A DNA stretch of 39,638 nt from a virus. Under the pieces are notes generated by a model. That model saw nothing but the letters and a program-made list of their open reading frames with translations. It was not told where the DNA came from and made no database searches. The position numbers and the translations under genes were made by a program. This document shows positions 7,804 through 22,588 of the stretch, one piece after another (the stretch's first letter is position 1; each line of letters opens with the position of its first letter). The stretch lies in IMG/VR virus record IMGVR_UViG_3300046838_000284, positions 1 to 39,638 of that record; one strand, given 5' to 3'.

Positions 7804-7961
7804 CATAACCACCAGCCTGTACTCTGAGAACTTCGCTTAAATTAGTGCGTGATTTGCAGGACTTCTCCGCATAACACTGGTGGTTATGACTACCCCGGGG
7901 ACAAAAAAAAGCGGCGACTAGCGGCGATTCTTCGCCATTAGGACAGATAATGGTGGTTATC
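7804..7961. promoter_or_regulatory. Control region with three related operator-like repeats
   Basis: A palindrome CATAAC-N7-GTTATG lies at 7870-7888. A second palindrome GATAA-N6-TTATC lies at 7946-7961. A half-site CATAACCACCAG lies at 7804-7815. All share the core ATAACCACCA. The minus strand can be read as a 64-codon GTG frame here, but the repeats and a T-run argue for control DNA. The obvious candidate binder is the ribbon-helix-helix protein encoded just upstream. Confidence 0.55.
7908..7938 (-). terminator. Weak terminator candidate after the regulator gene
   Basis: On the minus strand GGCGA-AGAA-TCGCC (7937-7924) is followed by a second CGCC copy and then a run of eight Ts at about 7910. 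The stem is short, so termination may be partial. It lies between the ribbon-helix-helix gene and the genes to its left. Confidence 0.35.
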
Positions 7962-7971
7962 GTGCGTTGGG

Positions 7972-8148
7972 TCACGACTTCGCCCCCTCGGCCTCGACCT
8001 TGGCGAGATGGGCCTCGATCGCCACGTTGGCCTCGGCGGTCATCGTCCGGTGTTCGCGCTTCGCCAACTCTTGAAGGCGGCGGTGCGTCGAATGTGGAAG
8101 CCGGACCAAGACTGCCTGCCGCTCCCCGTTGTCGGTCTGCTTCGCCAC
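7972..8148 (-). CDS. Ribbon-helix-helix (Arc/CopG-like) regulator
   Basis: About 58 residues. After a short polar N-terminus comes RQAVLVRLPHSTHRRLQELAKREHRTMTAEANVAIEAHL-type sequence: a DNA-contacting strand (AVLVRLP), helix, turn and second helix typical of Arc/CopG/MetJ dimers. It probably represses promoters nearby, perhaps via the ATAACCACCA repeats next to it. Possible starts are GTG at 8154 or 8148. The -10 element of a strong promoter ends at 8156, so the second GTG lies where transcription should start, which suggests a leaderless message, common in actinobacteria. A TTG at 8157 is inside the -10 and can be excluded if this promoter is used. Confidence 0.7.
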   Translation of the reverse strand: MAKQTDNGERQAVLVRLPHSTHRRLQELAKREHRTMTAEANVAIEAHLAKVEAEGAKS

Positions 8149-8155
8149 TAGCACC

Positions 8156-8183
8156 AAGATATACGGTCACGCAGATATGTCAA
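8156..8183 (-). promoter_or_regulatory. Promoter of the ribbon-helix-helix gene
   Basis: Minus strand: TTGACA (8183-8178), 16-base spacer, TATCTT (8161-8156). TATCT occurs twice in the region as a direct repeat, possibly for self-regulation. Seven bases after the -10 is GTG. Confidence 0.6.
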
Positions 8184-8232
8184 GGGCGGAAAGGTAAGTC
8201 GCGCTACAGCATTCCCCGGACGTTGCGGCAAC

Positions 8233-8271
8233 AAAAAACGCCCCCGCTCCGAAAGGAACGAGGGCGTTCTT
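8233..8271 (-). terminator. Intrinsic terminator after the lysozyme-like gene
   Basis: Minus strand: a GC-rich stem (AACGCCC..CGTTCC paired with GG.GCGGGGGCGTT) with a TTTC loop, directly followed by six Ts. It lies about 30 bases beyond the stop at 8303 and separates the late/lysis transcript from the regulator gene. Confidence 0.85.
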
Positions 8272-8302
8272 GTAATTCCTGCGTCGGCAGGGTGACCACC
8301 TC

Positions 8303-8836
8303 CTAAGAGCAGACCCACTCCCCGGATCTGCCCTGCCGCCACATCCAGGCGGCGGCGAGGCTCTGCCATTTGGCCGAGTAGATGTCCCGGCCGCCGTAGG
8401 GCGTGGTCGCCCAGGTCGATGGGATGAACTGAAATAGCCCCGTCGACCCCGATGAGCCGTTGACCGCAAAGCGATTCCAGGTCGACTCGCACATCGAGAC
8501 GCTGAGCATCCAGCCTTCATCGGCCCCATAGGTCAGAGCCGCCCCGTGGATGCAATCGGGGATCGGACCGGCGTCGGAGCAATTCCCCCAGCGCAGCTTG
8601 TAGGCCCGGTGCTCGTAGAAGTGGCGCTGGTCTCGGCGCCACCTCGCCCGCAGCTTGCCGCGATAGCCGCAGCCCCGGGCTCGATTCAGTTGCCTGCGCT
8701 TCGCCGCCAGAACCTTGGTTGAGGGTGATCCCCTGCGCCAATGAGAAGGCGCCCACGTTCTAGCTGAGAATTGGCGAAACGATGCTGCTCCGTCGCATTG
8801 CCTTGCGGCGGTATTTGGGTGGCTCGGCGCGATCAA
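8303..8836 (-). CDS. Lysozyme/transglycosylase-like cell wall hydrolase, start uncertain
   Basis: The C-terminal 75 residues read as a lysozyme/transglycosylase-like fold: CESTWNRFAVNGSSGSTGLF, then FIPSTWATTPYGG and WQSLAAAWMW. The Glu of ESTWN is the likely catalytic acid, as in soluble lytic transglycosylases and Rpf-like enzymes. Residues 35-90 are basic. The first in-frame start is TTG at 8836, but the frame stays open to 8905. That 23-codon stretch encodes an N-terminal basic patch and a hydrophobic run (SNRKAWITPALLPIALVAAL) that looks like a signal peptide, without an ATG, GTG or TTG. A rare start or a one-base error may be involved. It would cut peptidoglycan during lysis or entry. 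Confidence 0.65.
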   Translation of the reverse strand: MIAPSHPNTAARQCDGAASFRQFSARTWAPSHWRRGSPSTKVLAAKRRQLNRARGCGYRGKLRARWRRDQRHFYEHRAYKLRWGNCSDAGPIPDCIHGAALTYGADEGWMLSVSMCESTWNRFAVNGSSGSTGLFQFIPSTWATTPYGGRDIYSAKWQSLAAAWMWRQGRSGEWVCS

Positions 8837-8978
8837 GGCAGCGACGAGCGCTATCGGCAGTAGGGCTGGAGTGATCCAAGCCTTTCTGTTGCTTGCAAGG
8901 TCGGCCTATTGCCAGGCCTTCCAGGAAGGGGGGTTGCTACGGTGGGCGCTCAACCACTACTCGGAGGGAGAACCCGAG

Positions 8979-9185
8979 ATGGACGACGACACGTTTATTA
9001 CCTGGGGCCAGCTAAAGCGAGCTGTCGAACGGGCGTCGCAAACAGCGGAAGGCTATTCCGAAAGCCGCGATCCACATGAAGAGATCGCGCAGGTCACAGC
9101 ATCAATGGCTTTGGCGCATTTGGAGTCAGCGCTCGATGAAGAGCGGCAGAGTGCCGAGCTGGCCGAGGAATTGAAAGAGACTTAG
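8979..9185 (+). CDS. Small acidic plus-strand protein, 68 aa
   Basis: A frame against the general direction. The best start is ATG at 8979, preceded by GGAGGGAG eight bases upstream; the frame itself extends further left without support. The protein is acidic and helical (WGQLKRAVERA, MALAHLESALDEE). It diverges from the lysozyme-like gene and converges on the next minus-strand gene. No family recognised. Confidence 0.5.
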   Translation: MDDDTFITWGQLKRAVERASQTAEGYSESRDPHEEIAQVTASMALAHLESALDEERQSAELAEELKET

Positions 9186-9322
9186 CGGGCCAGTTCTCCA
9201 ACCTTGCCCGCGAGCGGCAGCGGCCCTTCGGGGTCGCTTGTCGTTGAAGAGGAGGGGCGCAAACGCTCAGCGACTTTCTCGTCAGATGGGTCTCGCGGCG
9301 CTGCGCCCCACGTTCAAGCGAT

Positions 9323-9375
9323 CCTGATCTGGACCCCAATGGTGGAGGGGTCGCCGAATCGCTTTGAAGATCAGG
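9323..9375. terminator. Compound inverted repeat between converging genes
   Basis: CCTGATCT (9323-9330) pairs with AGATCAGG (9368-9375). Inside it GACCCC (9332-9337) pairs with GGGGTC (9347-9352). It lies between the plus-strand gene ending at 9185 and the minus-strand gene ending at 9371, so it could stop transcription from both sides. There is no long T-run. The rest of 9186-9370 shows no gene. Confidence 0.4.
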
Positions 9376-9559
9376 CTGCTTCTTCGGCGAGATCCTGAGC
9401 GGCGGTCGTCATCGCCGCCTCAAGCTCGGCCTTGGCCCTGCGTATCCGCTCGTTGAAATCGGGGTCGTGACGGGAACCTCTTTCGATCATCGCCAGTTCC
9501 TCGCGGATCTCCCTCATCTTGCGCTGTAGCCCCTGCTGCCGCAGGCTTGACTTACTCAT
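9371..9559 (-). CDS. Small coiled-coil protein, 62 aa
   Basis: Start taken at ATG 9559-9557 (MSKSSLRQQG); an in-frame TTG lies four codons earlier. The protein is nearly all helix with heptad-like spacing (LQRKMREIREELAMIERG, KAELEAAM) and an acidic end. The start codon lies at the centre of a seven-base inverted repeat. No function can be assigned. Confidence 0.55.
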   Translation of the reverse strand: MSKSSLRQQGLQRKMREIREELAMIERGSRHDPDFNERIRRAKAELEAAMTTAAQDLAEEAA

Positions 9560-9566
9560 AGTAAGT
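9550..9566. promoter_or_regulatory. Inverted repeat centred on a start codon
   Basis: ACTTACT and AGTAAGT flank the three bases that form the start codon at 9557-9559. It could be an operator or an RNA hairpin that hides the start. Confidence 0.4.
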
Positions 9567-9597
9567 AGCAAGGTAGAGGTCAGCTAGGACGCAGCGG

Positions 9598-10521
9598 CTA
9601 CGCGGTGAAGTCAACGGCCCGAGCGACTTTCCAGCATGCCCGGCAACGCCTGTAGGCAGGCTTGCTGGTCTGCTTACCGCAATCCTCGCAATGCCCCACA
9701 GCAGCAGCTTTGGCTCGATGTTTCGCCCGGAAGCTCTTTGTCCGACACTCCGGGGAGCAAAGCTTGCGGTACTTGTTCTCGGGCATGAAGGTTTTCCCGC
9801 AATGGGCGCATTGCTTCTCGCGCAGCTTCGCTCGGGCTGCGCCGCTGCATTTCCGGCTGCAATATTTGGCGCCAAAATAGGACCCCTTGAATCGCTTCCC
9901 GCAGATCCCGCAAGTGGAGAGGGCGCGATCCCCACGGAGCATCGTAGATTCGTGTTCAGCGAAAACGACGACAGTTCGCGGTCGCTCCGGGTCAAACTCG
10001 ACGGCGGCCATCACTGCGGTGACTTGAGAGTCGTCGTCCCATACCACTCCGGTCGCTGCGTCGAGGACGAGCTTGAGCATGTTGTCGGCATCGATCCGCT
10101 GGCGGTTCGGGCGGAAGAAGATGCATCCCACTGCCACATTGCTTTGGAAGGGCTTGATTTTGGCGCGGAACCGCCACGCAAGAGCTTCCTGGGCTGTCTG
10201 GGTGGCCTTGGGCGTGTAGCTGTGGCCGTTTCGGGTGAACCTCGCTCGCGCCTTGGAGGCCGGGTCGCCTTCTATGACCGCCACATCCATGCGGTTCGTT
10301 TGAGCATGGAGAGCGCTCACCATTAGCTCTGCGCGGGCTATGTCGCTCAGCTCAGCCACGGGGGTCATTTTCCCATCGCCCTCGGCCGTGACTTCCTCCT
10401 TCGGCGCAGGCGTTCCCGGTACTCGGAAGGAGACTCGGGCTGCCTCCCCCTGCTCCAAGGACGCGAGTGGCAGGGGAGAAGCCAGTCCATCGTCTCTTTG
10501 AGCGTGCAAGTGGGTTCCCAC
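9598..10521 (-). CDS. rusA: RusA-type Holliday junction resolvase with three C-terminal zinc knuckles
   Basis: 307 residues if GTG 10521 is used; TTG at 10509 or ATG at 10368 are alternatives, and no start has a clearly better ribosome site. Residues 80-185 are the RusA fold: IEGDPASKARARF, the catalytic stretch RIDADNMLKLVLDA (142-155) with the key acidic residues, and WDDDSQV (161-167). RusA cuts four-way junctions during phage recombination, repair or packaging. Residues 204-296 add three zinc knuckles with Cys at 204/207/221/225, 238/241/255/259 and 278/281/293/296, presumably for DNA binding. RusA proteins are usually about 120-140 residues, so this is about twice normal. A second RusA-like start (SFRVPGTPAPK, 31-41) lies near the N-terminus. 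Confidence 0.75.
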   Translation of the reverse strand: MGTHLHAQRDDGLASPLPLASLEQGEAARVSFRVPGTPAPKEEVTAEGDGKMTPVAELSDIARAELMVSALHAQTNRMDVAVIEGDPASKARARFTRNGHSYTPKATQTAQEALAWRFRAKIKPFQSNVAVGCIFFRPNRQRIDADNMLKLVLDAATGVVWDDDSQVTAVMAAVEFDPERPRTVVVFAEHESTMLRGDRALSTCGICGKRFKGSYFGAKYCSRKCSGAARAKLREKQCAHCGKTFMPENKYRKLCSPECRTKSFRAKHRAKAAAVGHCEDCGKQTSKPAYRRCRACWKVARAVDFTA

Positions 10522-11309: not shown

Positions 11310-11924
11310 TCACTTCAGGACGTCGACCCCATAGACCTTGCGGATCGCGTTGATCTCTTTGACGAGCCGCTTCGTGTAGGGCGAGGTCGGGTGCAGCTTG
11401 TGGGCGATGAAGAAGCGGGCAAGCAGGGTCACGTAGCCCTCCGGGTAGCCATCGCCGCAGTCGCTATGGCCTGAGCCTGAGATCCCCAGATCCTTGTGCT
11501 GGAAGATCCCTGCCCGAGTGATCGCCCCGTTTGAGCAGGCGCCCTTGTGCAGCGGCACCCCGTAGTGGGTGTGGCCGTAGGCGAGGAATTCGGCGGCGCC
11601 GTGGAGCTGGTCGTGGCGCTTGAACCAGTGCTCCTTGGTGAAGGCAGCGAAGCCGATCTGCTCAAGGCTGAGCGTCACCTGGTTGAAGTTGCAGACCGCC
11701 CAGGCCTTCGCTGAGTCCTCGACATAGCGGCCGAACTTGCCGTCGACGTTGACGCCGATGTGCGCGGAGGCTTCCTCGCCATCGAAGATCTCACCGAGCG
11801 TCTTTAGGTCGGCGAGGCCGCTCGGATGGTCTGAGCCCTCCGTTGTGTGCAACACCAAAGCATGAATCCGCGCCCCTTCCCGCGAGGACTGGTGCGGCGT
11901 TATATGGGTGTAGTCGATCTTCAT
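11310..11924 (-). CDS. Endolysin, N-acetylmuramoyl-L-alanine amidase (Amidase_2/PGRP)
   Basis: 204 residues. Zinc ligands appear as His26 (ALVLHTTEG), His143 (FQHKDL) and Cys156 in GHSDCGDGYP, the usual order for amidase_2 enzymes; SLEQIGF (86-92) matches the conserved glutamate region. It cleaves the bond between muramic acid and the stem peptide. No wall-binding domain is obvious; the C-terminal 40 residues are basic. No signal peptide, so it needs a holin. AAGGAG precedes the ATG by seven bases. It is followed by the holin-like gene. Confidence 0.9.
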   Translation of the reverse strand: MKIDYTHITPHQSSREGARIHALVLHTTEGSDHPSGLADLKTLGEIFDGEEASAHIGVNVDGKFGRYVEDSAKAWAVCNFNQVTLSLEQIGFAAFTKEHWFKRHDQLHGAAEFLAYGHTHYGVPLHKGACSNGAITRAGIFQHKDLGISGSGHSDCGDGYPEGYVTLLARFFIAHKLHPTSPYTKRLVKEINAIRKVYGVDVLK

Positions 11925-12611: not shown

Positions 12612-15600
12612 CTAAGACAGTCCTGCGGCTTCTCGGGCGAGAGATTGGCGGGCGATGATCGCGTCGAGGATCATGCTCGGCGCATCGACGGTGATCTCCA
12701 GGGTTTTTGCTTCTTCGTCCCAGGTCGTCCCGGTTATCAACCGTGGTTCGTCGGCGGGGTGGTCCATGATTCCGAGCGTCTCGGAGTTGCGGACTTTCCA
12801 GCCCTGGTGCCAGTGCCCGGCGAAGTCCTGGATGTAGCCACCCGCGATCCTGAACGTCCCGGGTCTCTTTGGCCGGTTGTACTCGGCCAGGTAGGTGCGC
12901 CCGAACTGCAGCGCTTCGCCTTCGATCGTCGGCCACGGCACTTCCACCTCGGTCCAGAGCTCTTCGCCGTGGCGGTTGGCCGGGTTGGCTTCGTTTTCGT
13001 CGCGCAGCTCTTCGTGGTCGGGCGGGTAGAGGACGCGCTGCACCCCGGCGAAGTCGGTGTAGGTGGTGATTACGCCGTTGGCGAAGTTTTCGATCGAGTC
13101 GCCCTGGAAGACGACCGTCACCCCCGGATCGTCGGTGCGAATCTGCCAGTCGTTCTTGGTCAGGTCCGCGGCTTCGAAGTGGAATTCGCGGTTCTCCCAG
13201 ACGTTGGTCTCCCAGAGGACGAGGTTGTTGAGCTGCTGGATGATGTCGTAGGGAAAGGCCGGTGAGTCCTGCCAGGCCGCCTGCTGGACCGGGAAGGTGT
13301 TCTGCTGCCCGGCCCAGACCAGCTTCGGCGCGTAGGTGGCGAGGACGTATTCGATGATGTCGGAGACGTAGAAGCCGATTTCCGGCCAGGTTCCCCGTTC
13401 GGTGAGACCGTGGTTGCCGAGCACCGCGAGATTCACCCAGCGGTGAATCAGGTTGACGTCGCCGGTCGTGGCGCCGAGGTAGGAGGTTTCGATGAAGGCG
13501 TACTTGCGGCCCGCTGCCGTGGCCGTCACCGACTGGTTCAGGGCACTCGCTTTCGCGTCGTGGTCGGTTCCCAGATCATTGACCGTGCCCAGGTCATCGG
13601 TCGAGAGGTATGCCCGGTCTTCCCATTCGACATCTTCGCCATGCCCGTAGAAGTCATAACGAAGCGCGCCGATGGCCTCGCCTCCCCCATAGAACCATTG
13701 CTCGCCGCGCTCGGCATAGGTGGCGATCAACCGCTGAATGGCGAAGGAGATCCCTGAGGCTAAGGTCGTGCCTGCATCCTGAAAGCCGACCGAGGCCGTG
13801 AACTGTTTAGCCGCGACCGAAGCCGCTCGCAGGACAGCCTCCCGTTCCATCGACATTTCCCCCCAGCCCGAGAGCCTGCGGTCGATTATCAGCGGCGCCG
13901 CTTTGCGGTTCTTCAGGTAGCTCATCCAGCCGACCAGCTGGACCTGGATCTGCTCGGAGGGGTCGTTGGTGCGGGGGTCCGATTGCAGCCGTCCCTCGTA
14001 GGCCACCTCGCCGTTCCGCCCGATCGCCCGCCAGGTATCGAGCAGGCCGATGTCAGGGTAGTCGCGGAAGATTTGGCGGTTGAGCAGCAGCGAGCCGATC
14101 CCGAAACCGTCACCCCGCTGGGTCGAGAAGTTCCCGTTGCTCGGCCGGTTCCTTGCTTTGGATGAGTCCGAGGGCAACCGGAAGGTGCCGTTCGGGGTTT
14201 CGACCTCCCAGTCAAGTGCAAGGGGGGGTTTGCGTCGCAGGCCGGGCGGCGCGGGCGGCCAGGCCGGCACCGTGGCAAGGTCGGACAGCAGATTCGCGAC
14301 CGGCCCCCGGAAATAGGGATCGGCTACGGCTTTTGCGTAGGCCGCCGTCGCGGATTCGGAGGTCTCGATCGGCCAGTCGAGCCGCACTCCGGGTTCCTTT
14401 TCGATGTTCCAGTTGAAGTAGGCGGCTGCCCGGATCGCCGGGAAGCTCGCCTTCAAGGTGGCGAAAAGGGAGGTCAGCCATTCGGCCTTCGCGGGCGGTG
14501 CCGGGGCCGCCGTGGTCAGGTACTCCGAGCAGGCGAACTCGCCGAGCAGCATCGGCTTGCTCGGGGCGATTTCGAGGATCCGCTGGTAGGTTGGGCGGAT
14601 CAGCGCGAGCGGGGTGCGCCAGCCGTGCAGCGCTTTCGGGTTTTCGCCGTTGTAGCCGTCGATCCCGGTCCAGTGGACATATTCGTCGCCGGGGTAGAAG
14701 GCTTCGGGATCGAAGGCGCCAAGCAGGATATTCGGGCACCATGCGAAGGTCGCGTTCGGGGCGATCGGATGCACTTTGTTGTAGACGTAGCGCCAGGCTT
14801 CGACGTACTGGGTCGCGTTTTCGGCGAAGCCGAAGCCACTGACCGCGTTCGCCTCCCACCACAGCCGCAGGAAGAAGGGGTGTTTGAAGGCCGCCGCCGC
14901 TTCGGCCCAGGTTTTGATCGCGGCGTCTTCTTTGCCTTCGAGGACTTTTTTGCAGATCCCCGCACCGCCGCCGATCGACTTGTAGGGGATCGCGCCGCGT
15001 TCGTGGCAGCGTTCGCTCTCATCGGTCCCGTTGTCCCAGGTCAGCCAGGTATCGGCGAACTGGACGAGGCTCTGCTTCTTCCCGGCGTGGGCCTCGAAGC
15101 GATCCCAGGTGACGATCCCCGAACCGCTGAGGGGCGCGTCGGCGCGGACCGATTCGCTTTCCAGGATCGCCACATCGCCGTCCATCGTCGCGCCCAGGTA
15201 GCAGCCGATCGAGGGAACGCTCGGCACTTCGGGGTAGCTGGCACCGAAGTAGGAGTTATTCGCCGTGCCGGTGCTGTCGTTGATCCCGACGTCGGCAACG
15301 TAGACCGTCGTCGCCAGGGTGCCGACTTTCCCGGCCTGTAGGAGGGTCGGCGTCGCGACTCCGGTCGTATGCGCTGCGTCGCTCTGTTCGGAGCGAAAGA
15401 CGCTGCCATCGGTGTTGAGGACGCGCCAGGCGATCGTCCCGTTGCCCGCCGCAGGGACCAGCAGTTTGACCTCGACCACATACCAGGTTTCTTCGGCGGC
15501 GACTCCCGATGCACTGCCGATGTTGACCGAGGCTTTCGGGTTCCAGCAAGTGAGCGTCCCGTCGGCGTGAAGCGAGATTTCGGTGATCGTTTCGAAGCCG

Positions 15601-15839
15601 TGGCCGACCCGCAGCAGGGCCAGGTTCGAGGCCGGTTTGGTCGCGTAGCGAACCGCGGCCCGGTGGAAGTAGGTCGTGCCGAGCGCCCCGGTGTAGGCCC
15701 CGCGCAGGTAGCTTTCCCCGGCCCCGGCGCATTTGGCGCAGGCGATGTTCCGTGCGTGGGCGGTGTCTTCGGTGACGGTGCCGGTCAGCCCCACGCTTTG
15801 CAGCGCCCAATCGTCGCAGCGCTCGGTCAGGATTCTCAA
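12612..15839 (-). CDS. Tail-tip protein with embedded GH26-like glycoside hydrolase
   Basis: 1075 residues from a TTG with GAGGAG five to six bases upstream. Three parts are visible. Residues 1-205 are beta-rich and resemble a LamG/concanavalin-type sugar-binding or adhesion module. Residues about 210-510 read as glycoside hydrolase family 26: WDRFEAHAGKKQSLVQFADTW-type entry, FFLRLWWEANAV with candidate acid/base Glu329, and MLLGEFACSEY with candidate nucleophile Glu434, plus YVHWTGIDGYN. Residues 530-1075 look like a siphovirus tail-tip/baseplate protein. GH26 enzymes mainly cut beta-mannans or beta-1,3-xylan/glucan. The likely role is degrading a host capsule or wall polysaccharide during adsorption. 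The whole reads in one frame between tail genes. Confidence 0.8.
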   Translation of the reverse strand: MRILTERCDDWALQSVGLTGTVTEDTAHARNIACAKCAGAGESYLRGAYTGALGTTYFHRAAVRYATKPASNLALLRVGHGFETITEISLHADGTLTCWNPKASVNIGSASGVAAEETWYVVEVKLLVPAAGNGTIAWRVLNTDGSVFRSEQSDAAHTTGVATPTLLQAGKVGTLATTVYVADVGINDSTGTANNSYFGASYPEVPSVPSIGCYLGATMDGDVAILESESVRADAPLSGSGIVTWDRFEAHAGKKQSLVQFADTWLTWDNGTDESERCHERGAIPYKSIGGGAGICKKVLEGKEDAAIKTWAEAAAAFKHPFFLRLWWEANAVSGFGFAENATQYVEAWRYVYNKVHPIAPNATFAWCPNILLGAFDPEAFYPGDEYVHWTGIDGYNGENPKALHGWRTPLALIRPTYQRILEIAPSKPMLLGEFACSEYLTTAAPAPPAKAEWLTSLFATLKASFPAIRAAAYFNWNIEKEPGVRLDWPIETSESATAAYAKAVADPYFRGPVANLLSDLATVPAWPPAPPGLRRKPPLALDWEVETPNGTFRLPSDSSKARNRPSNGNFSTQRGDGFGIGSLLLNRQIFRDYPDIGLLDTWRAIGRNGEVAYEGRLQSDPRTNDPSEQIQVQLVGWMSYLKNRKAAPLIIDRRLSGWGEMSMEREAVLRAASVAAKQFTASVGFQDAGTTLASGISFAIQRLIATYAERGEQWFYGGGEAIGALRYDFYGHGEDVEWEDRAYLSTDDLGTVNDLGTDHDAKASALNQSVTATAAGRKYAFIETSYLGATTGDVNLIHRWVNLAVLGNHGLTERGTWPEIGFYVSDIIEYVLATYAPKLVWAGQQNTFPVQQAAWQDSPAFPYDIIQQLNNLVLWETNVWENREFHFEAADLTKNDWQIRTDDPGVTVVFQGDSIENFANGVITTYTDFAGVQRVLYPPDHEELRDENEANPANRHGEELWTEVEVPWPTIEGEALQFGRTYLAEYNRPKRPGTFRIAGGYIQDFAGHWHQGWKVRNSETLGIMDHPADEPRLITGTTWDEEAKTLEITVDAPSMILDAIIARQSLAREAAGLS

Positions 15840-15978: not shown

Positions 15979-16296
15979 ATGACAGGCAGAATCCTAGCGG
16001 CAGTCGTCCTCATTTTTGCGGCATTCTTAGTCGCCGGTTGCGGCGGAGGCGGTGAAGCCAAAACCGCCTGCGAAAGGTCCAACTATGGTCCGAGCAAGGG
16101 CTGCAGGAAAGAAACGCTCAGGCTCGAAAAGGAAAACGAAGCGGCGTTGAACGGCGGGGCGGCGGCGCCATCCGAACCCAGCCAGCAGGAATACGAAGAA
16201 GTCGAAGAAGGCTACGAAAGCGCTGCCGCCGAAGAGCAGCGCGAACGAGAAGAAAACCCCAGCGGAGAAAGCAAATGGGAAGAACTCGCGCATTAG
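15979..16296 (+). CDS. Plus-strand lipoprotein, 105 aa
   Basis: ATG with AAAGG eight bases upstream. Residues 1-20 are a signal peptide ending in lipobox LVAG before Cys21, so the mature protein is lipid-anchored at the outer face of the membrane. The rest is charged and Glu-rich with four Gly after the Cys and two further Cys pairs around 31-42. No enzyme motif. It lies between two minus-strand tail genes and is read the other way, which is how lysogenic-conversion (moron) genes are often placed. It could act in superinfection exclusion, but that is a guess. Confidence 0.7.
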   Translation: MTGRILAAVVLIFAAFLVAGCGGGGEAKTACERSNYGPSKGCRKETLRLEKENEAALNGGAAAPSEPSQQEYEEVEEGYESAAAEEQREREENPSGESKWEELAH

Positions 16297-16601
16297 CACT
16301 GATCGCGGCAGCGCTGCTGGTGTTGGGGGCGTCGGGGGCGCAGGCTTCGCCGCTTCTCACTGGTCCTGACGCCCGAGTGGCTCTAGTGGATTGGTCGCTC
16401 GCGCATGGGATGGAACGGGCGGAACTGCGGCGGTGCTGGCGGCTCTCGCGGAACCGCGTGCGCTGTGTGCTGGCTGAGTGGGGAGCTTGGGGGAGTGAAG
16501 GATTGCGGGCCGAAGGGACACCATCGAAGTACGAAGCCCGTCGCACCTCGCAGCGAGTCGTAATAACCTGGATCGACCTTGCGTTTGGATCGCTGCCCTA
16601 G
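16275..16601 (+). CDS. Plus-strand secreted protein, 108 aa
   Basis: Starts at ATG 16275 inside the end of the lipoprotein gene, with GGAGAAAG upstream. Residues 1-24 form a signal peptide (ALALIAAALLVLGASGAQA) with a likely cut before Ser25. The mature part is small and basic, with one Cys pair near 58 and 68 (RCWRLSRNRVRCV), which could form a disulphide. Not recognised as any enzyme or toxin. The pair is probably a co-transcribed cassette. Confidence 0.65.
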   Translation: MGRTRALALIAAALLVLGASGAQASPLLTGPDARVALVDWSLAHGMERAELRRCWRLSRNRVRCVLAEWGAWGSEGLRAEGTPSKYEARRTSQRVVITWIDLAFGSLP

Positions 16602-16610
16602 CGCGGCAGC

Positions 16611-18644
16611 TCACCGCGGCACCAAGAATCGTTCCTTTACCAGCACTTCGGTTTTGTGTTTGTCGGTGACGTTAGGCGAGGCCTCAGCCTCGGCGTCGTT
16701 CCGCCGCATCGAGATCACGATCCGGTTATAGAGCCCGTCTTTGCCTCCCGGGGGTAGGTAGAGGTTGGCGCCGCGGAACTCGGAGGCTGTCCCTTCGTAG
16801 GCGCCCGTGGAGTCCTGGCGGGTGAAGCCCTCGCTGGTGGCGCGGCAGGTGCGGGTCGAGTAGCAGACCCGGCCCGCAGCATCCCCGGTGAGCAGGCTGA
16901 AGCTGTCGTAATTGCGGGTGCAGGCTGAGGCGAGCAACCAGGCATCGTAGAAGCCGCCCTTCCCTTTGGCGAGTGTCCCCCCGGTTGCCAACACCGAGTC
17001 TTGGCCTTCAAGCATCGGACTGGGCTCGGCACTCCCGCTGAGATACATCGATGCCTGCCAAGTCCCGTTGGCATCTACGGTAAGCGACACCACCATTTTT
17101 TCTTCCTGCACTCCAACCCCGCCGGCGAGGAAGAAGTCATCGAGCACGGTGGTGGTTCCGGCCACCCGCTTAGCTACGGCAAGTTTGGAACGTACTGTTT
17201 CGGAGTTATGAAAGTACGCCATCAGCCAGTTTTCGGGGTTGGTGTACCGAAGGAAAACCCCTCGCCTGAATTCGGTAGCCGATGAAAACGCGACGGTCGG
17301 CGACCAAACAACGACGCTCACCTTCGAGGTCGTCGGTTCTTCGGTGCCAGCGATCGCATAGCAGCCAGCAACGGCACTGGCATCGCTGACTTCCACCCGT
17401 TGCACCAGGTCTTCCGCCGCAATCACCTTGAACCCCGCCGCTCCGGTTTTGGTCGCCTCGGCCCAGTTCCCACCGAGCGGCAGGGCCTTAGGCGCATCGA
17501 GGTTGCCTTCGGTCTGCAGGAAAGTGTCGTAGGCGAGCAGCTTGGTCGGAGCGCTACTCGCCAGCCCCCGCGCCTTGCCGTAGCCCTTGGTGGTCGGGAC
17601 CAGCTCGAGGTAGTTCAAGTCGAGTTCGAGCGGCTCGCCTGCGGTCTTCACTTCGACCCTGATTTCCGAGTGCTGTTCTCCGGTACTCGCTTCATCGAAG
17701 GTGACCTCGCCGAAGTCGATGTCGGAGAAGTCGCCGACGATCGGCGGCGCCTTGCCTTCCAGGGCGACCAGCGGCCCATCGCCGTTGCGGTAGGAGATCC
17801 GGTAGCGGGCATCTTCTGAGGCGGCATAGACATGCCCGAAGATGCGGAAGGAACCGACGTGTTTGATCGCCCCGGTCCCGCACATCGTCGTCCACTGCGA
17901 GACTGCCGTGGCCCGTTTGACTTTTTCTTCGGAGTAGGCCCCGGTCCGCGTTTTGGCTTCGCCCGAGAAGCCGGTCGTGACAAGGCTTCCGGCGGTAACC
18001 AGGGTCGGCGGGTTTCCCGTTTCTGAGGCGACGAGATCCTGCCCGTAGCGGAAGTAGCGGCGGTCCTGGGTGGCTTTGTCGGTGACGATCAGCTTCACCA
18101 GCGCGGGAAAGTCCCCACCGGGTTTGAGGTAGAGCACCTGCTGCGGTGCGGCTCCCGATTCGACTGCGGCCAGCAGCGTTCGCTCTTCGGTCTCCCCCGC
18201 TGCCGTGCAGGTCAGTTTGATTTTCTGCACCGGGGAGTTCAGGAAGTAACCGGCGGTGTCTCCTGAGACCACGGTCGGCATTTCGGGCATCTCGCCCAGC
18301 AGCACTGACCATGTGTAGGTGGTCGACGTCCCCGCCGGGGTCCATTCCAGCGGCGCCCCACCTTCGGTTCGAGTGCAGGAATGCAGGGCATCGAGGAATT
18401 CGCCCACCTTCGCCCGAGCGCTTTCCGCGTCTTCCTGCCGCTCGACACGCAGCATGAATTCGAAGTAGGCCGAGGTGTATTTCGGCTCATCGACCAGGGC
18501 GTCCTCATCGGCTGCCGCATTGCTCGCCCAGAGCGGCTTCGCGGCGGCGGGGGTGAAGGTGAAGCTGTCGCCTTCGATGCCGAAGTTCGTGCCGTCATTG
18601 AGATCGAGGCCATTGAGGACGAGGCCCTCCAGAACGGAGGTCAT
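16611..18644 (-). CDS. Tail-tip (distal-tail-like) protein with C-terminal lectin-like module
   Basis: 677 residues, directly downstream of the tape measure gene (start and stop share the same base region). The N-terminal 220 residues (GLVLNGLDLNDGTNFGIEGD, then strands) fit a distal tail/Dit-like tail protein. The C-terminal 300 residues (about 370-650) have the Gly/Trp/Thr-rich beta pattern of LamG/concanavalin-like modules. Expected to attach to the tail end and contact the host surface. Exact family not certain. Confidence 0.7.
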   Translation of the reverse strand: MTSVLEGLVLNGLDLNDGTNFGIEGDSFTFTPAAAKPLWASNAAADEDALVDEPKYTSAYFEFMLRVERQEDAESARAKVGEFLDALHSCTRTEGGAPLEWTPAGTSTTYTWSVLLGEMPEMPTVVSGDTAGYFLNSPVQKIKLTCTAAGETEERTLLAAVESGAAPQQVLYLKPGGDFPALVKLIVTDKATQDRRYFRYGQDLVASETGNPPTLVTAGSLVTTGFSGEAKTRTGAYSEEKVKRATAVSQWTTMCGTGAIKHVGSFRIFGHVYAASEDARYRISYRNGDGPLVALEGKAPPIVGDFSDIDFGEVTFDEASTGEQHSEIRVEVKTAGEPLELDLNYLELVPTTKGYGKARGLASSAPTKLLAYDTFLQTEGNLDAPKALPLGGNWAEATKTGAAGFKVIAAEDLVQRVEVSDASAVAGCYAIAGTEEPTTSKVSVVVWSPTVAFSSATEFRRGVFLRYTNPENWLMAYFHNSETVRSKLAVAKRVAGTTTVLDDFFLAGGVGVQEEKMVVSLTVDANGTWQASMYLSGSAEPSPMLEGQDSVLATGGTLAKGKGGFYDAWLLASACTRNYDSFSLLTGDAAGRVCYSTRTCRATSEGFTRQDSTGAYEGTASEFRGANLYLPPGGKDGLYNRIVISMRRNDAEAEASPNVTDKHKTEVLVKERFLVPR

Positions 18645-21600
18645 CAGAGCGTCCCCACCGAGCCGTTGCCCGCCAAGGCCGAGCGGTGAATCGTTTTGGC
18701 CCCGAGCTGCCCAGCAATGAGATCGGCGAGCGCTCGTTTCGCCGTGACCAGCCCGACCGCCATCTCCGATTCACCGATCTTGTTGCTCTGTTCGATCGCT
18801 TCCGTGAGGGCCTTGATTGCCTGGGTCTGTTCTTCGGCTGCCGCTTTCTGTTCTTCGATTGCTTTTTTGGTTTCTTCTTCTTCGGCTTCCTGCAACCCCT
18901 GCAGGCTGCCTTCGGTGCCCCAGAGTTCGCCCGCCAGTTCTTCTCGTTTGGCGAGGATTTTGTTGCGAGCTTTTTCGGTGAGCCCACCTTTGCGCAGTTT
19001 CGCATTGAGGCTGGCGATCCGTTGCGCCAGTTGGGCTTTGTGGCCGGTGAACAGTTCGCGCTGGAAGGCTCGCGCCGCTTTGTCGTCTACCGTGCCTTCG
19101 GTGCCAGCGGCGACTTCCGCAGCCCGTTCGGCGATCGCAACTTTTCCTTCGTAACTGAGTCCGGGTGCCGAGAGCGCGGCCTGGATCGCGCCGGGAAGTC
19201 CCGCGGCCGAGGGGAGCAGCGCCGAAGGGGCGAGGCCTCCAACCGTCAGCGCTTTGTTGTTGGCGATCTGAGCGGCGATCGTGGCCTTGGCGATCCCGAT
19301 GTGGGGGGTGAATTTGCTGTGTTTGCTGCCCCCGCTCCTCGCCCCGGCAGTACCTATCCCGCTTTTCGCTCCGGCAAGACTCGCGCCGAGATCCAGCGCG
19401 GTCCCATAGGAGTCGGTCGGGAAGGCGGCGGGGTTTATCCCCATCTTGCGGGCGCCAGCTCCGGTCACGTCGATCACGCGGCCGGTCCAGGGCGCAGGCC
19501 CGATGTCAGTCTGCTTCAACAGCGCCGAGTGCGTACCGATCTTGACCTTGAACCAATCCCCAAGCGTGCTCTGGTTGTAGATGGCAATCCCCGGCAGTGA
19601 GGACGAGACACCCGAAGCCGTCGTCCCTGCACCCTCACCCGGTGGGCCGAAGGTCGAAACCTTGCCGCTGACTAGGCCCCCCTTGGCGAACCGGCCCAGA
19701 ATGCCGCCGAAGCGGTAACCCAGAGCGCTCTTCATCGCCGCTCCGGACCCCATCGGACCGGGGGGATAGAAACCGATCTCGAGGTGCGGGCCGGTGGAGA
19801 TGCCGACGATGCCTGACCCGACTTCACCGATCTGCTGACCGGCGCGGAAATGCGTCCCCACCGGGAGAAGATGTCCCGGCCCGGCGTGGCCGTAGTAGGC
19901 CTTTACGCCGCCGCCGAGGCCGATGATCGGCGCACTGGGACCGAAGCCCGAGATGCCGTGGCCGAGCATGGTGCCAGAGCCCAGCGCCAACAGCGGGGTG
20001 CCGCCAGGAGCAGCGAGGTCCCAGCCCTGGTCCACCGCACCGGGGACCCAGCTACCGGCCGGGAGCGGGAAGGTGAACCTGCCGTGGCGGAAGGCTGCGC
20101 CGGAGACGCCGCCAGGAGCCTTCTGGCTGCCGATCAGGTGCTTGACTCCTTCCAGCACCCGCGTCAGCGCGGTGCCCCCGATCTTCCCCGCCAACCCTGC
20201 GCCGCTTCCCGAGAGACTCGCGGCACCGCCCTTGACGAAGCCAGGGATGCCGAGCCAGCGCCCGGCCTCCATCCAGTGCCCGATGTTCTTCCTCCGATAG
20301 GCGGGGTTGGAGGCAATCACCATCTCAGGATGTGCGGGGGCCTCCTCGCCGACCATGACCATCGGACGGGTGACCGAGCCACCACGGGCGCGGTGCCCGG
20401 CGTGTTTTGCGCCTTCTTCCTTCGCTTGCCCCTGCGGGGTGAACTTCGGGCCGAATTCCCCGGCCTGAAAGCGGACCAGCGCCTTGAACTGGGCGATGTT
20501 CCGCAGTCCGAGCAATTTCAGCATCTGGGAGGTGTTGGTGCCAATGCTTTCCAGCGCCCCGCCGACCCCGTGGGCAGCTTCCTGGAAGGCTTTGGCGATC
20601 GGTCCCGTGGCGCCTTTCTGCACCCCTTCGCGGAGCTGCTGGTTGGTGGCTCCGAAGCGGTTCAGCAGGTGTTCGGTGAGCTTCTGCACCTGAGCTTCAA
20701 TCTTGGGGTGTCCGTCGGCCCAGGCCTTCATCATCCCCAGCGTTGCGTTGATGCTCTGTTCGCGCACGCCCTTGGTGAGGCCCGCGAATTTGACGATCAG
20801 CTTGGAGATTCCTGCATCGGTGATCCCGCCGGCCCGCTTCCAGACCCCCTCCATCCCCTGGGCGACCAGATCACCCATCCGCTTCATCTGCGCCCGCAGC
20901 GGCGCGAGGGTGGAGCTTGAAGCTCCGCTTTCGAGCCCGATCTTCATCATGTGCTGGATCTGACCGGAGAGCTCGGGGAATTTCCCGAGGCGCTTGGCCT
21001 TCAGGGCGAGGTCGATTTCAGGTCCGACCTTGGAGCCGAAGTGCTTGGCGAACTTTTCCGCGGCGCTTTCACCCGATTCACCGAATAGCGCGCTGATCTC
21101 CCCGCCGATGTCGGGGTTGAGTTTCTGCTGGAGTTCCTTCAGGAACCCGGAGTGCTTTTCGCCGAGTTTCTGGGCGACGATCGCCGCTGCGGTGACGCCA
21201 ACCGGGGGGATAAGAGCCGAGGCCCCGACCCCCGCCACAGCACCACCCGCCTCGGCGCCGCCCGTGGCGGCTCCCGCCGCTCCGAGGCCTCCGAGTGCAG
21301 TTGCCGCCGTACCGGCCATCTTGATGATCGTCCCCAGCGCGCCGATGATCGGCCCGAAGGCGATGGCCGCGATGCCGAGTTTGATGATCCAGCTCTGGGT
21401 CCATTTCGGCAGCTTGTTGAAGGCGCCGATGACTGAGCGGATGCCAGCGCCGATTTCGGTAAGCAGCGGGATCACGACCGGCAGCAGTTTTTCCCCGAGT
21501 TCGATCATCACCGCTTTGAGCTGGGCGAGATCGGCATGCATTTTGAAGGCGGGGGTTTCCTGCGTTTCTTTCCATTTCTTGCCGAAGTCGCCGGTCGATT

Positions 21601-22588
21601 TGGTGATCTCCCCCACTTTCGTATGGAGTTCGCCCACGTTGTCGACCAGCGTGCGAATCGCCTTTGACGATTTGACGCTGAAGGCTTCGGTGAGGACCTG
21701 GTTGGCTTTGGTCTTCCCCAGCGTCGAGAGTTTGTCGGCCAGCACACCCACCGCCGCCGGTAGGCCTTCGGCGCGCATTACCTTCGCCATTTTTTCGGAG
21801 CTGATCCCGATCGTGGCGAGCACTTTGGCCGCGGTGGAGGTCGGCGTCGCCATCCGCAACAGGCCCTGATTCAGCGCAGTGGTGGCATTCTGAGCTTTGA
21901 CCCCTCGGGAGGTCATCACGTCGAGCGCCGCACCGACATCAGTGAGGCTGAGGCCGAGCTGTTTGGCGGTGACAAGGATGCCGCTGGAGAAGCTCTGGGT
22001 GAGTTCTTCCATGCGGATGTCGCCGTGGCCGACGATCGCGTTCAGGGTCCCCATCGCCTGTCCGAGATTTTGGGTTCCCTTGATCCCGGTCTTCTGGGCG
22101 GAGATCAGCGCATAGGTGGTTTCCTCGAGTTCTGAGCCACCGACCGCAGCGAGTTTGGTGGCGCCGCGCAGCTCCTTCATTGCTTTGGCGCCGCGGAAGC
22201 CGACCGACTCGATGTGGAAGGCGGCTTTGGAGAGTTCCTGTGGGTCGAAGGCACTCTTGCCCGACTGGGCGAATTTGAGGATCGACTTGGACAGCCGCTC
22301 CATCTCATTTCGCGAAGCACCCGCCTGAGTGCTAATCAGGGTCATCGATTTGTTGAATTCGACCGCGGACTTCACGGCCAGCGCCCCCACCGCGGCGATC
22401 GGTAGCGAGACGTGGGTCGTCCAGCTCCGCCCGAAGCTCTGCATCGAAGAGCCGATCTTCTTCATCCGCAGGCCCGCGGCCTCCATGCCCGTAGCGGCAG
22501 CCGCGGTGGATTTGGTGGCCCGGGCCATCGCCGCTTCCAGGGCAACTGAGTCCCCGGTGATATGTACCTCAAGTACGCGGCTCGGCAC
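18644..22588 (-). CDS. Tape measure protein with M23-like and RlpA-like wall-active domains
   Basis: 1314 residues from GTG 22588. Residues 1-350 match the TP901-type tape measure core (ATKSTAAAATGMEAAG, MEELTQSFSSGI, LNQGLLRMATP). Hydrophobic stretches around 395-460 are typical of tape measures. Residues 833-945 resemble an M23 peptidase, but the first zinc His is replaced (DQGWDLAAPGG) and the HLH signature reads GPHLEIGF, so catalysis may be altered. Residues 973-1070 look like a double-psi beta-barrel (RlpA/3D) domain: TASG, IAIYNQSTLG, TDIGPAPWTGRVIDVT. The C-terminal 130 residues form a coiled coil. These modules probably open peptidoglycan during DNA entry. Confidence 0.9.
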   Translation of the reverse strand: MPSRVLEVHITGDSVALEAAMARATKSTAAAATGMEAAGLRMKKIGSSMQSFGRSWTTHVSLPIAAVGALAVKSAVEFNKSMTLISTQAGASRNEMERLSKSILKFAQSGKSAFDPQELSKAAFHIESVGFRGAKAMKELRGATKLAAVGGSELEETTYALISAQKTGIKGTQNLGQAMGTLNAIVGHGDIRMEELTQSFSSGILVTAKQLGLSLTDVGAALDVMTSRGVKAQNATTALNQGLLRMATPTSTAAKVLATIGISSEKMAKVMRAEGLPAAVGVLADKLSTLGKTKANQVLTEAFSVKSSKAIRTLVDNVGELHTKVGEITKSTGDFGKKWKETQETPAFKMHADLAQLKAVMIELGEKLLPVVIPLLTEIGAGIRSVIGAFNKLPKWTQSWIIKLGIAAIAFGPIIGALGTIIKMAGTAATALGGLGAAGAATGGAEAGGAVAGVGASALIPPVGVTAAAIVAQKLGEKHSGFLKELQQKLNPDIGGEISALFGESGESAAEKFAKHFGSKVGPEIDLALKAKRLGKFPELSGQIQHMMKIGLESGASSSTLAPLRAQMKRMGDLVAQGMEGVWKRAGGITDAGISKLIVKFAGLTKGVREQSINATLGMMKAWADGHPKIEAQVQKLTEHLLNRFGATNQQLREGVQKGATGPIAKAFQEAAHGVGGALESIGTNTSQMLKLLGLRNIAQFKALVRFQAGEFGPKFTPQGQAKEEGAKHAGHRARGGSVTRPMVMVGEEAPAHPEMVIASNPAYRRKNIGHWMEAGRWLGIPGFVKGGAASLSGSGAGLAGKIGGTALTRVLEGVKHLIGSQKAPGGVSGAAFRHGRFTFPLPAGSWVPGAVDQGWDLAAPGGTPLLALGSGTMLGHGISGFGPSAPIIGLGGGVKAYYGHAGPGHLLPVGTHFRAGQQIGEVGSGIVGISTGPHLEIGFYPPGPMGSGAAMKSALGYRFGGILGRFAKGGLVSGKVSTFGPPGEGAGTTASGVSSSLPGIAIYNQSTLGDWFKVKIGTHSALLKQTDIGPAPWTGRVIDVTGAGARKMGINPAAFPTDSYGTALDLGASLAGAKSGIGTAGARSGGSKHSKFTPHIGIAKATIAAQIANNKALTVGGLAPSALLPSAAGLPGAIQAALSAPGLSYEGKVAIAERAAEVAAGTEGTVDDKAARAFQRELFTGHKAQLAQRIASLNAKLRKGGLTEKARNKILAKREELAGELWGTEGSLQGLQEAEEEETKKAIEEQKAAAEEQTQAIKALTEAIEQSNKIGESEMAVGLVTAKRALADLIAGQLGAKTIHRSALAGNGSVGTL

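What the first reader, a model, noticed from the sequence alone, without database searches (positions are those of the whole stretch)
12612..15839. GH26-like glycosidase built into a tail-tip protein
A 300-residue region with the acid/base motif RLWWEAN and nucleophile motif LLGEFAC sits in frame between a lectin-like N-terminus and a siphovirus tail-tip C-terminus. Phage depolymerases are usually lyases, pectinase-like beta-helices or sialidases; I know of few GH26 modules in tail proteins. It suggests a host coat with beta-mannan-like or related sugars.
Basis: partly seen in the sequence, partly recalled or inferred. Interest (0 to 1): 0.75.

Follow-up and report, generated by a model that had tools for sequence, protein, structure and literature searches.

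The report
Sugar-cutting enzyme built into phage tail
A soil phage carries a GH26 sugar-chain-cutting enzyme fused to the protein at its tail tip, most likely to clear a path through the sugary coat of its (probably thermoleophilian) host; related phages carry the same enzyme cassette on other tail parts or as a separate neighbouring gene.

Summary
The finding holds. The ORF at 12612-15839(-) is one 1,075-aa protein: an N-terminal beta-sandwich (about 1-204), a complete GH26 barrel (about 208-518) and a baseplate-hub module (about 535-1075). The GH26 assignment rests on sequence (CtLic26A, E=3e-11; two-sequence profile 6e-24) and fold (Z 33.5, 1.9 A over 270 residues). E329 and E434 align with the CtLic26A acid/base and nucleophile and are invariant in 100 aligned GH26 domains. 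Comparative anatomy is the strongest evidence for a virion role. Two sister phages have the hub without the cassette; one phage has a GH26 gene 3 nt upstream of a separate hub gene; a contractile phage has the same cassette fused to wedge protein gp25. Twelve phage GH26s form one clade (100/98), whose nearest cellular relatives are secreted Thermoleophilia enzymes, several beside glycosyltransferase or sulfotransferase genes. Best explanation: a tail-tip depolymerase cutting host exopolysaccharide. New variant of a known kind; no isolated phage among 50,697 records gave a close match.

The parts
12612..15839 (-). Whole gene: 1,075-aa beta-sandwich / GH26 / tail-hub fusion protein (TTG start)
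   Evidence: Open frame with RBS gaggag 5-6 nt before TTG; full-length relative in L002.
15228..15839 (-). N-terminal beta-sandwich domain, residues about 1-204 (LamG/lectin-like, putative sugar binding); first 40 residues modelled with low confidence
   Evidence: AlphaFold2 model strands E44-E187 at mostly 60-80 pLDDT; conserved in L002 (42%) and in L008, where it also precedes GH26 (31%).
14286..15218 (-). GH26 (beta/alpha)8 catalytic domain, residues about 208-518
14853..14855 (-). E329, predicted catalytic acid/base (RLWWEAN); aligned with CtLic26A E109
   Evidence: Alignments; 100/100 conserved.
14538..14540 (-). E434, predicted nucleophile (LLGEFAC); aligned with CtLic26A E222
   Evidence: Alignments; 100/100 conserved.
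12615..14237 (-). Tail/baseplate hub module (Tal/gp27/gpJ-like), residues about 535-1075
   Evidence: A stand-alone gene product in L003 and L004 and L124; Foldseek matches to T1, T5, Chi, lambda tail tips and Mu-type hubs.
16611..18644 (-). Dit-like tail protein upstream of the hub gene; the L002 counterpart carries an inserted CBM_4_9
   Evidence: Conserved between TMP and hub in L002, L003, L004 and Thermoleophilia prophages; 'Dit' is by position.
18644..22588 (-). Tape measure protein with M23 peptidase domain
11310..11924 (-). Amidase_2 endolysin downstream of the tail module

Best explanation
The protein is a tail-tip hub subunit that carries a virion-borne polysaccharide depolymerase. 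The C-terminal module builds the hub at the end of the siphophage tail. The N-terminal cassette (beta-sandwich plus GH26) is displayed on it: the sandwich is proposed to hold a surface polysaccharide while the retaining GH26 enzyme (acid/base E329, nucleophile E434) cuts beta-linkages in the chain. This would let the tail reach the cell wall, where the tape-measure M23 peptidase opens peptidoglycan. The substrate is most likely an exopolysaccharide or capsule of the host, probably a member of the Thermoleophilia. Shown by computation: domain architecture, GH26 fold, conserved catalytic residues, hub identity by fold and gene order, cassette mobility between hub and gp25 and an unfused form next to the hub gene, clade and nearest cellular relatives. 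Inferred: virion location, activity, substrate, sugar binding by the sandwich, host, and role in entry.
For: GH26; catalytic Glu invariant 100/100. Hub. L003 and L004 encode the hub alone. L124 has GH26 (7953-8786) 3 nt upstream of a separate hub gene (8790-10517). L008, a contractile phage (sheath phrog_23, E=2e-33), has sandwich+GH26 fused to gp25 (phrog_43, E=2e-9). L122 and L125 have GH26 just after Dit/minor-tail genes. Twelve phage GH26s form one clade, 100/98; sister is a secreted Thermoleophilia enzyme whose gene follows a sulfotransferase gene (98/94). Other Thermoleophilia and Actinomycetota relatives lie near GT2/GT4 glycosyltransferases. Hub and Dit homologues occur as prophage genes in 4/399 Thermoleophilia genomes and in 0/394 Actinomycetes genomes. 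The cassette diverges faster than the hub (42-50% against 62% identity, WIN-L002), as expected of a host-facing part.
Against: No experiment; no virion proteomics. Substrate unknown. The His before the acid/base, typical of GH26 mannanases and present in CtLic26A, is Trp. The hub model is poor overall (pLDDT 37.5), so its identification rests on its better-modelled part (about residues 380-470 of the module) and on gene order. Host link is indirect; 4/399 against 0/394 is suggestive only. In L128/L010 a clade member lies among replication genes, so not every phage GH26 of this clade is in a tail module.
Confidence: 0.78

Rival explanations
1. Auxiliary metabolic enzyme: the GH26 degrades environmental or plant polysaccharide to feed the host during infection, as soil-virome papers have read viral GH26 genes.
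For: Viral GH26 genes have been listed as auxiliary metabolic genes in mangrove and tundra soils (PMC6460857; PMC10127799). A member in L128/L010 lies outside the tail module.
Against: In the window the enzyme is fused in frame to a tail-hub module and has no evident signal peptide; the same cassette is fused to gp25 in another phage, and GH26 genes abut hub or Dit-region genes in others.
Confidence: 0.07
2. Binding-only module: the GH26 barrel has lost or never uses catalysis and acts as a receptor-binding domain.
For: Trp in place of the usual His next to the acid/base; phage tail proteins can use enzyme folds for binding.
Against: Both catalytic Glu, R325, D394 and Y396 are kept, and the Glu pair is kept in every clade member read. 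Trp at this position is shared with the secreted cellular relatives.
Confidence: 0.1
3. Peptidoglycan or cell-wall hydrolase: the module is a tail-associated lysin acting on wall glycan rather than on exopolysaccharide.
For: Tail-tip proteins of phages of Gram-positive hosts often carry muralytic domains (PMC5380687).
Against: No peptidoglycan-active GH26 is known to me; the phage already has an M23 domain in the tape measure and an Amidase_2 endolysin; the nearest relatives sit near polysaccharide-synthesis genes.
Confidence: 0.04

Closest known systems
CtLic26A (Endoglucanase H, PDB 2bv9/2cip/2cit), GH26 lichenase
   Same: Same fold (Z 33.5, 1.9 A, 270 residues); acid/base and nucleophile align; best sequence match.
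   Different: A cellulosomal plant-polysaccharide enzyme, not a phage tail part; has His before the acid/base where the phage has Trp; 26% identity over the structural alignment.
Tail-associated lysins/Tal proteins of siphophages of Gram-positive hosts (such as Tal of Tuc2009, TP901-1)
   Same: An enzyme domain carried by the tail-tip hub protein (PMC5380687).
   Different: Those are peptidoglycan endopeptidases or lysozymes, in my knowledge attached at the C-terminal side of the hub module; here it is a GH26 glycosidase on the N-terminal side.
Virion-associated polysaccharide depolymerases (tailspikes, fibres)
   Same: Proposed role: cleaving capsule/EPS to reach the cell.
   Different: The classes listed in PMC5380687 are sialidases, rhamnosidases, levanases, xylanases, dextranases and lyases, usually in trimeric tailspikes or fibres; GH26 is not mentioned there, and here the enzyme is part of the hub.
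GX15bay mangrove-soil phage endoglucanase (MK557849)
   Same: A phage-encoded GH26.
   Different: A separate gene with a putative membrane anchor among glycosyltransferase genes, not a tail protein, and outside the phage clade.
WpsE of Actinoplanes missouriensis (GH26 in an EPS cluster)
   Same: An actinobacterial GH26 encoded in an exopolysaccharide cluster with a proposed sulfation link (PMC13390465), as for the cellular sister gene next to a sulfotransferase.
   Different: Cellular; not compared by sequence here; function not determined.

Membership tests
Glycoside hydrolase family 26 | Sequence homology to GH26 | tested here: met
   PF02156 just under cut-off for the window protein alone (20.1 against 20.2 bits), above it for relatives L002, L008 and L010; PDB GH26 enzymes E=3e-11 and profile 6e-24.
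Glycoside hydrolase family 26 | (beta/alpha)8 barrel | tested here: met
   Model pLDDT about 90 in the barrel; Z 33.5 to 2bv9, Z 20-26 to other GH26 structures.
Glycoside hydrolase family 26 | Two catalytic glutamates, strands 4 and 7 | tested here: met
   E329 and E434 align with CtLic26A E109/E222 and are invariant in 100 domains.
Glycoside hydrolase family 26 | HE motif (His before the acid/base), once thought of as a family hallmark | tested here: not met
   W328. PMC6556568 says the motif is not conserved in the GH26 xylanase and unknown-function branches, so this does not exclude membership; it argues against assuming mannanase activity.
Glycoside hydrolase family 26 | Hydrolysis of a beta-linked polysaccharide with retention | not testable with these tools
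   Needs enzyme assay.
Siphophage tail hub (Tal/gp27/gpJ-like) | Gene position after tape measure and Dit | tested here: met
   TMP - Dit-like - hub order in window, L002, L003, L004 and Thermoleophilia prophages.
Siphophage tail hub (Tal/gp27/gpJ-like) | gp27-like hub fold | tested here: inconclusive
   Model poor overall, but the top 17 PDB Foldseek matches are all tail-tip, hub or central-spike proteins, best E=2.8e-4. No Pfam or PHROG family matched.
Virion-associated depolymerase | Enzyme is a physical part of the virion | not testable with these tools
   Inferred from in-frame fusion to a hub module, and to gp25 in L008.
Virion-associated depolymerase | Degrades host capsule/EPS | not testable with these tools
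   Indirect: nearest cellular relatives lie near glycosyltransferase or sulfotransferase genes.

The most novel reading that the evidence does not exclude
A clade of GH26 enzymes derived from the secreted, exopolysaccharide-associated enzymes of the Thermoleophilia/Actinomycetota lineage has become a mobile tail cassette, exchanged among siphophage hubs, myophage gp25 wedges and stand-alone tail genes, and acts on an uncharacterised host exopolysaccharide with a new GH26 specificity. Some GH26 genes counted as soil-virus 'auxiliary metabolic genes' would then be entry enzymes.
Probability: 0.5. Interest if true: 0.72.

Novelty: new variant of a known kind. Interest (0 to 1): 0.58.

Why it matters
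It adds a glycosidase family not listed among phage depolymerases in the review consulted (PMC5380687), placed on the hub itself and exchanged between unrelated tail architectures. It gives a testable handle on the surface sugar of the Thermoleophilia, a largely uncultured soil class, and it cautions against reading every viral glycoside hydrolase gene as carbon metabolism. If active, the domain could serve as a reagent for an unstudied bacterial polysaccharide.

Tried and rejected
PHROGs gave no family for the fusion protein or for the hub module, and Pfam none for the hub. A sequence search of solved structures with the N-terminal domain gave only chance matches; the fold list for that model was filled by the GH26 domain, so the sandwich's nearest fold was not determined. 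The hub structure prediction failed overall because only four sequences were at hand. The grouping WIN+L008a to the exclusion of L002, which would prove a direct swap between hub and gp25, had support 99/85, 90/91 and 94/87 in three trees, but the alternative was not rejected (AU p=0.097) and the sandwich domain is closer between WIN and L002, so I claim only that the cassette is shared between scaffolds. Early viral scans with narrow patterns missed most relatives; a broader alignment found them. Scans for the hub in viral contigs gave only known loci or could not be run. Mannanase identity was considered and not adopted. GX15bay's GH26 was considered as precedent and found to be a different arrangement. 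Literature searches found no GH26 in a phage tail protein, but the library is open-access only.

Full report
What was checked. The window is a 39,638-base IMG/VR virus record whose structural genes run on the minus strand: terminase, portal, protease, major capsid protein, tape measure protein with an M23 peptidase domain, a Dit-like protein, the gene in question, and an Amidase_2 endolysin. The gene at 12612-15839 encodes 1,075 aa from a TTG start preceded by gaggag. A 53%-identical full-length relative in another phage (L002) shows that the whole frame is a conserved protein.

The GH26 domain. The window protein alone scores 20.1 bits against Pfam GH26 (cut-off 20.2), but its relatives pass clearly: L002 43 bits, L008 34 bits and L010 28 bits. 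Against solved structures the best match is CtLic26A, the Clostridium thermocellum GH26 lichenase, at about 3e-11 for the single sequence and 6e-24 for a two-sequence profile, with GH26 mannanases and xylanases behind it. The AlphaFold2 model, built from 44 sequences, has pLDDT around 90 over most of the barrel. It superposes on CtLic26A with Z 33.5, 1.9 A over 270 residues; other GH26 structures follow at Z 20-26 and other barrel glycosidases at about 19. E329 aligns with CtLic26A E109 and E434 with E222 (positions counted from the alignments; their roles as acid/base and nucleophile are from my knowledge of that enzyme). Both are invariant in 100 aligned GH26 domains.

Substrate. I do not support the mannan inference. 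The nearest solved enzyme is a mixed-linkage beta-glucanase. The His before the acid/base, described as a GH26 hallmark but absent from the xylanase and unknown-function branches (PMC6556568), is Trp in the window and in all phage clade members read, and Trp also in the nearest cellular relatives. The specificity is therefore open and may be new.

The hub module. Residues 535-1075 match no Pfam or PHROG family, alone or through eight relatives. In L003 and L004 the same module is the entire product of the gene after the Dit-like gene (536 and 543 aa), and homologues occur in that position in Thermoleophilia genomes next to tape-measure and Dit-like genes. The structure prediction is poor overall (pLDDT 37.5) with a better part around residues 380-470. 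Even so, the top 17 PDB matches are all tail-tip, hub or central-spike proteins: T1, T5, Chi and lambda tail tips, MuSo2 and Mu hubs, and contractile injection systems. I read it as the tail hub; the fold test is formally inconclusive.

Modularity, the strongest evidence for a virion role. (1) The cassette is absent from the hubs of sister phages L003 and L004; L003 instead has a separate downstream tail protein with an SGNH/GDSL hydrolase domain. (2) In L124 a GH26 gene (7953-8786) ends 3 nt before the start of a separate hub gene (8790-10517): an unfused version of the window arrangement. (3) L008 is a contractile-tail phage (sheath E=2.4e-33, tube, LysM protein), yet it carries the same sandwich plus GH26 cassette fused to the N-terminus of baseplate wedge protein gp25 (phrog_43, E=2.2e-9 for the last 87 aa). 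(4) In L122 and L125 the GH26 gene follows Dit and minor-tail genes; in L126 it is the C-terminal part of a protein with repetitive N-terminal sequence next to a tail-fibre-like gene; in L127 it follows two repeats that look like PKD domains (my reading of the sequence). The exception is L128/L010, where a GH26 lies among replication genes.

Origin. In trees of GH26 domains, twelve phage sequences form one clade (100/98), sister (98/94) to a secreted enzyme from a genome of the same class as Solirubrobacterales MAG MGR_bin420 (L099/L110), and nested with Solirubrobacterales and other Actinomycetota enzymes. The L099 gene directly follows a sulfotransferase gene; other relatives lie near GT2 and GT4 glycosyltransferases. 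A GH26 in an actinobacterial exopolysaccharide cluster with a proposed sulfation link has been described in Actinoplanes (PMC13390465). Within the clade, whether the window cassette is closer to L008 or to L002 is not settled (AU p=0.097). The cassette is less conserved than the hub between the window and L002 (42-50% against 62%).

Host. Hub homologues were found in 4 of 399 genomes of that class (Thermoleophilia by the title of its centre genome) and in 0 of 394 Actinomycetes genomes. With the origin of the nearest cellular GH26s, this points to a Thermoleophilia host, but the numbers are small.

Mechanism proposed. Hub subunits at the tail tip present beta-sandwich and GH26 domains. The sandwich holds the host polysaccharide, the GH26 cuts it by the retaining two-glutamate mechanism, the tail advances to the wall, and the tape-measure M23 peptidase opens peptidoglycan. 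Architecture, fold, catalytic residues and modularity are computed; virion location, activity, substrate, host and role are inferred.

Novelty. The full protein has no match among 50,697 phage records at E 1e-3. GH26-domain searches found only the GX15bay mangrove phage (a separate gene annotated endoglucanase, with a putative membrane anchor, among glycosyltransferase genes) and weak matches in unannotated faecal metagenome records and one Rhodococcus phage match at chance level. The review consulted does not mention GH26 among virion-associated depolymerases (PMC5380687). Soil virome studies list viral GH26 as auxiliary metabolic genes (PMC6460857; PMC10127799). An enzyme on the tail hub is a known kind (Tal proteins); a GH26 glycosidase there, on the N-terminal side, shared with gp25 and present as a free neighbour gene, is a new variant.

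Noticed in passing
window 15979-16296 and 16275-16601 (+): Two small ORFs on the opposite strand between the Dit-like and hub genes start with a lipoprotein signal (LVAGC) and a secretion-type signal. They look like a moron insertion; a superinfection-exclusion lipoprotein is one idea.
   Followed up: no
L008 14858-15871: The contractile phage L008 carries a second GH26 as a separate gene (coil-like N-terminus plus GH26) beyond the baseplate genes, near a putative holin: possibly for release through the host coat.
   Followed up: partly
L126 7038-8870 and L128 7908-8876 (one 91.9-kb contig): One phage has two GH26 genes, one fused to a fibre-like structural protein and one stand-alone among replication genes.
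   Followed up: partly
L003 9976-11514: A sister phage lacking GH26 has a separate tail protein with an SGNH/GDSL hydrolase domain after its hub gene, perhaps an alternative sugar-modifying (deacetylase) entry enzyme.
   Followed up: partly
L002 4812-7409: The Dit-like protein of L002 contains an inserted CBM_4_9 domain, so sugar binding may be spread over two tail proteins.
   Followed up: partly
L110 7835-9340, L112, L113, L114: Thermoleophilia/Actinomycetota genomes carry clusters of 2-5 secreted GH26 genes; one follows a sulfotransferase gene and others lie near glycosyltransferases or a methyltransferase: candidate exopolysaccharide loci.
   Followed up: partly
L130 7767-9074, L131, L132 7512-8924: More distant GH26-like proteins (match E about 1e-18 to 1e-20) in other phage contigs; their place in the family was not tested.
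   Followed up: no
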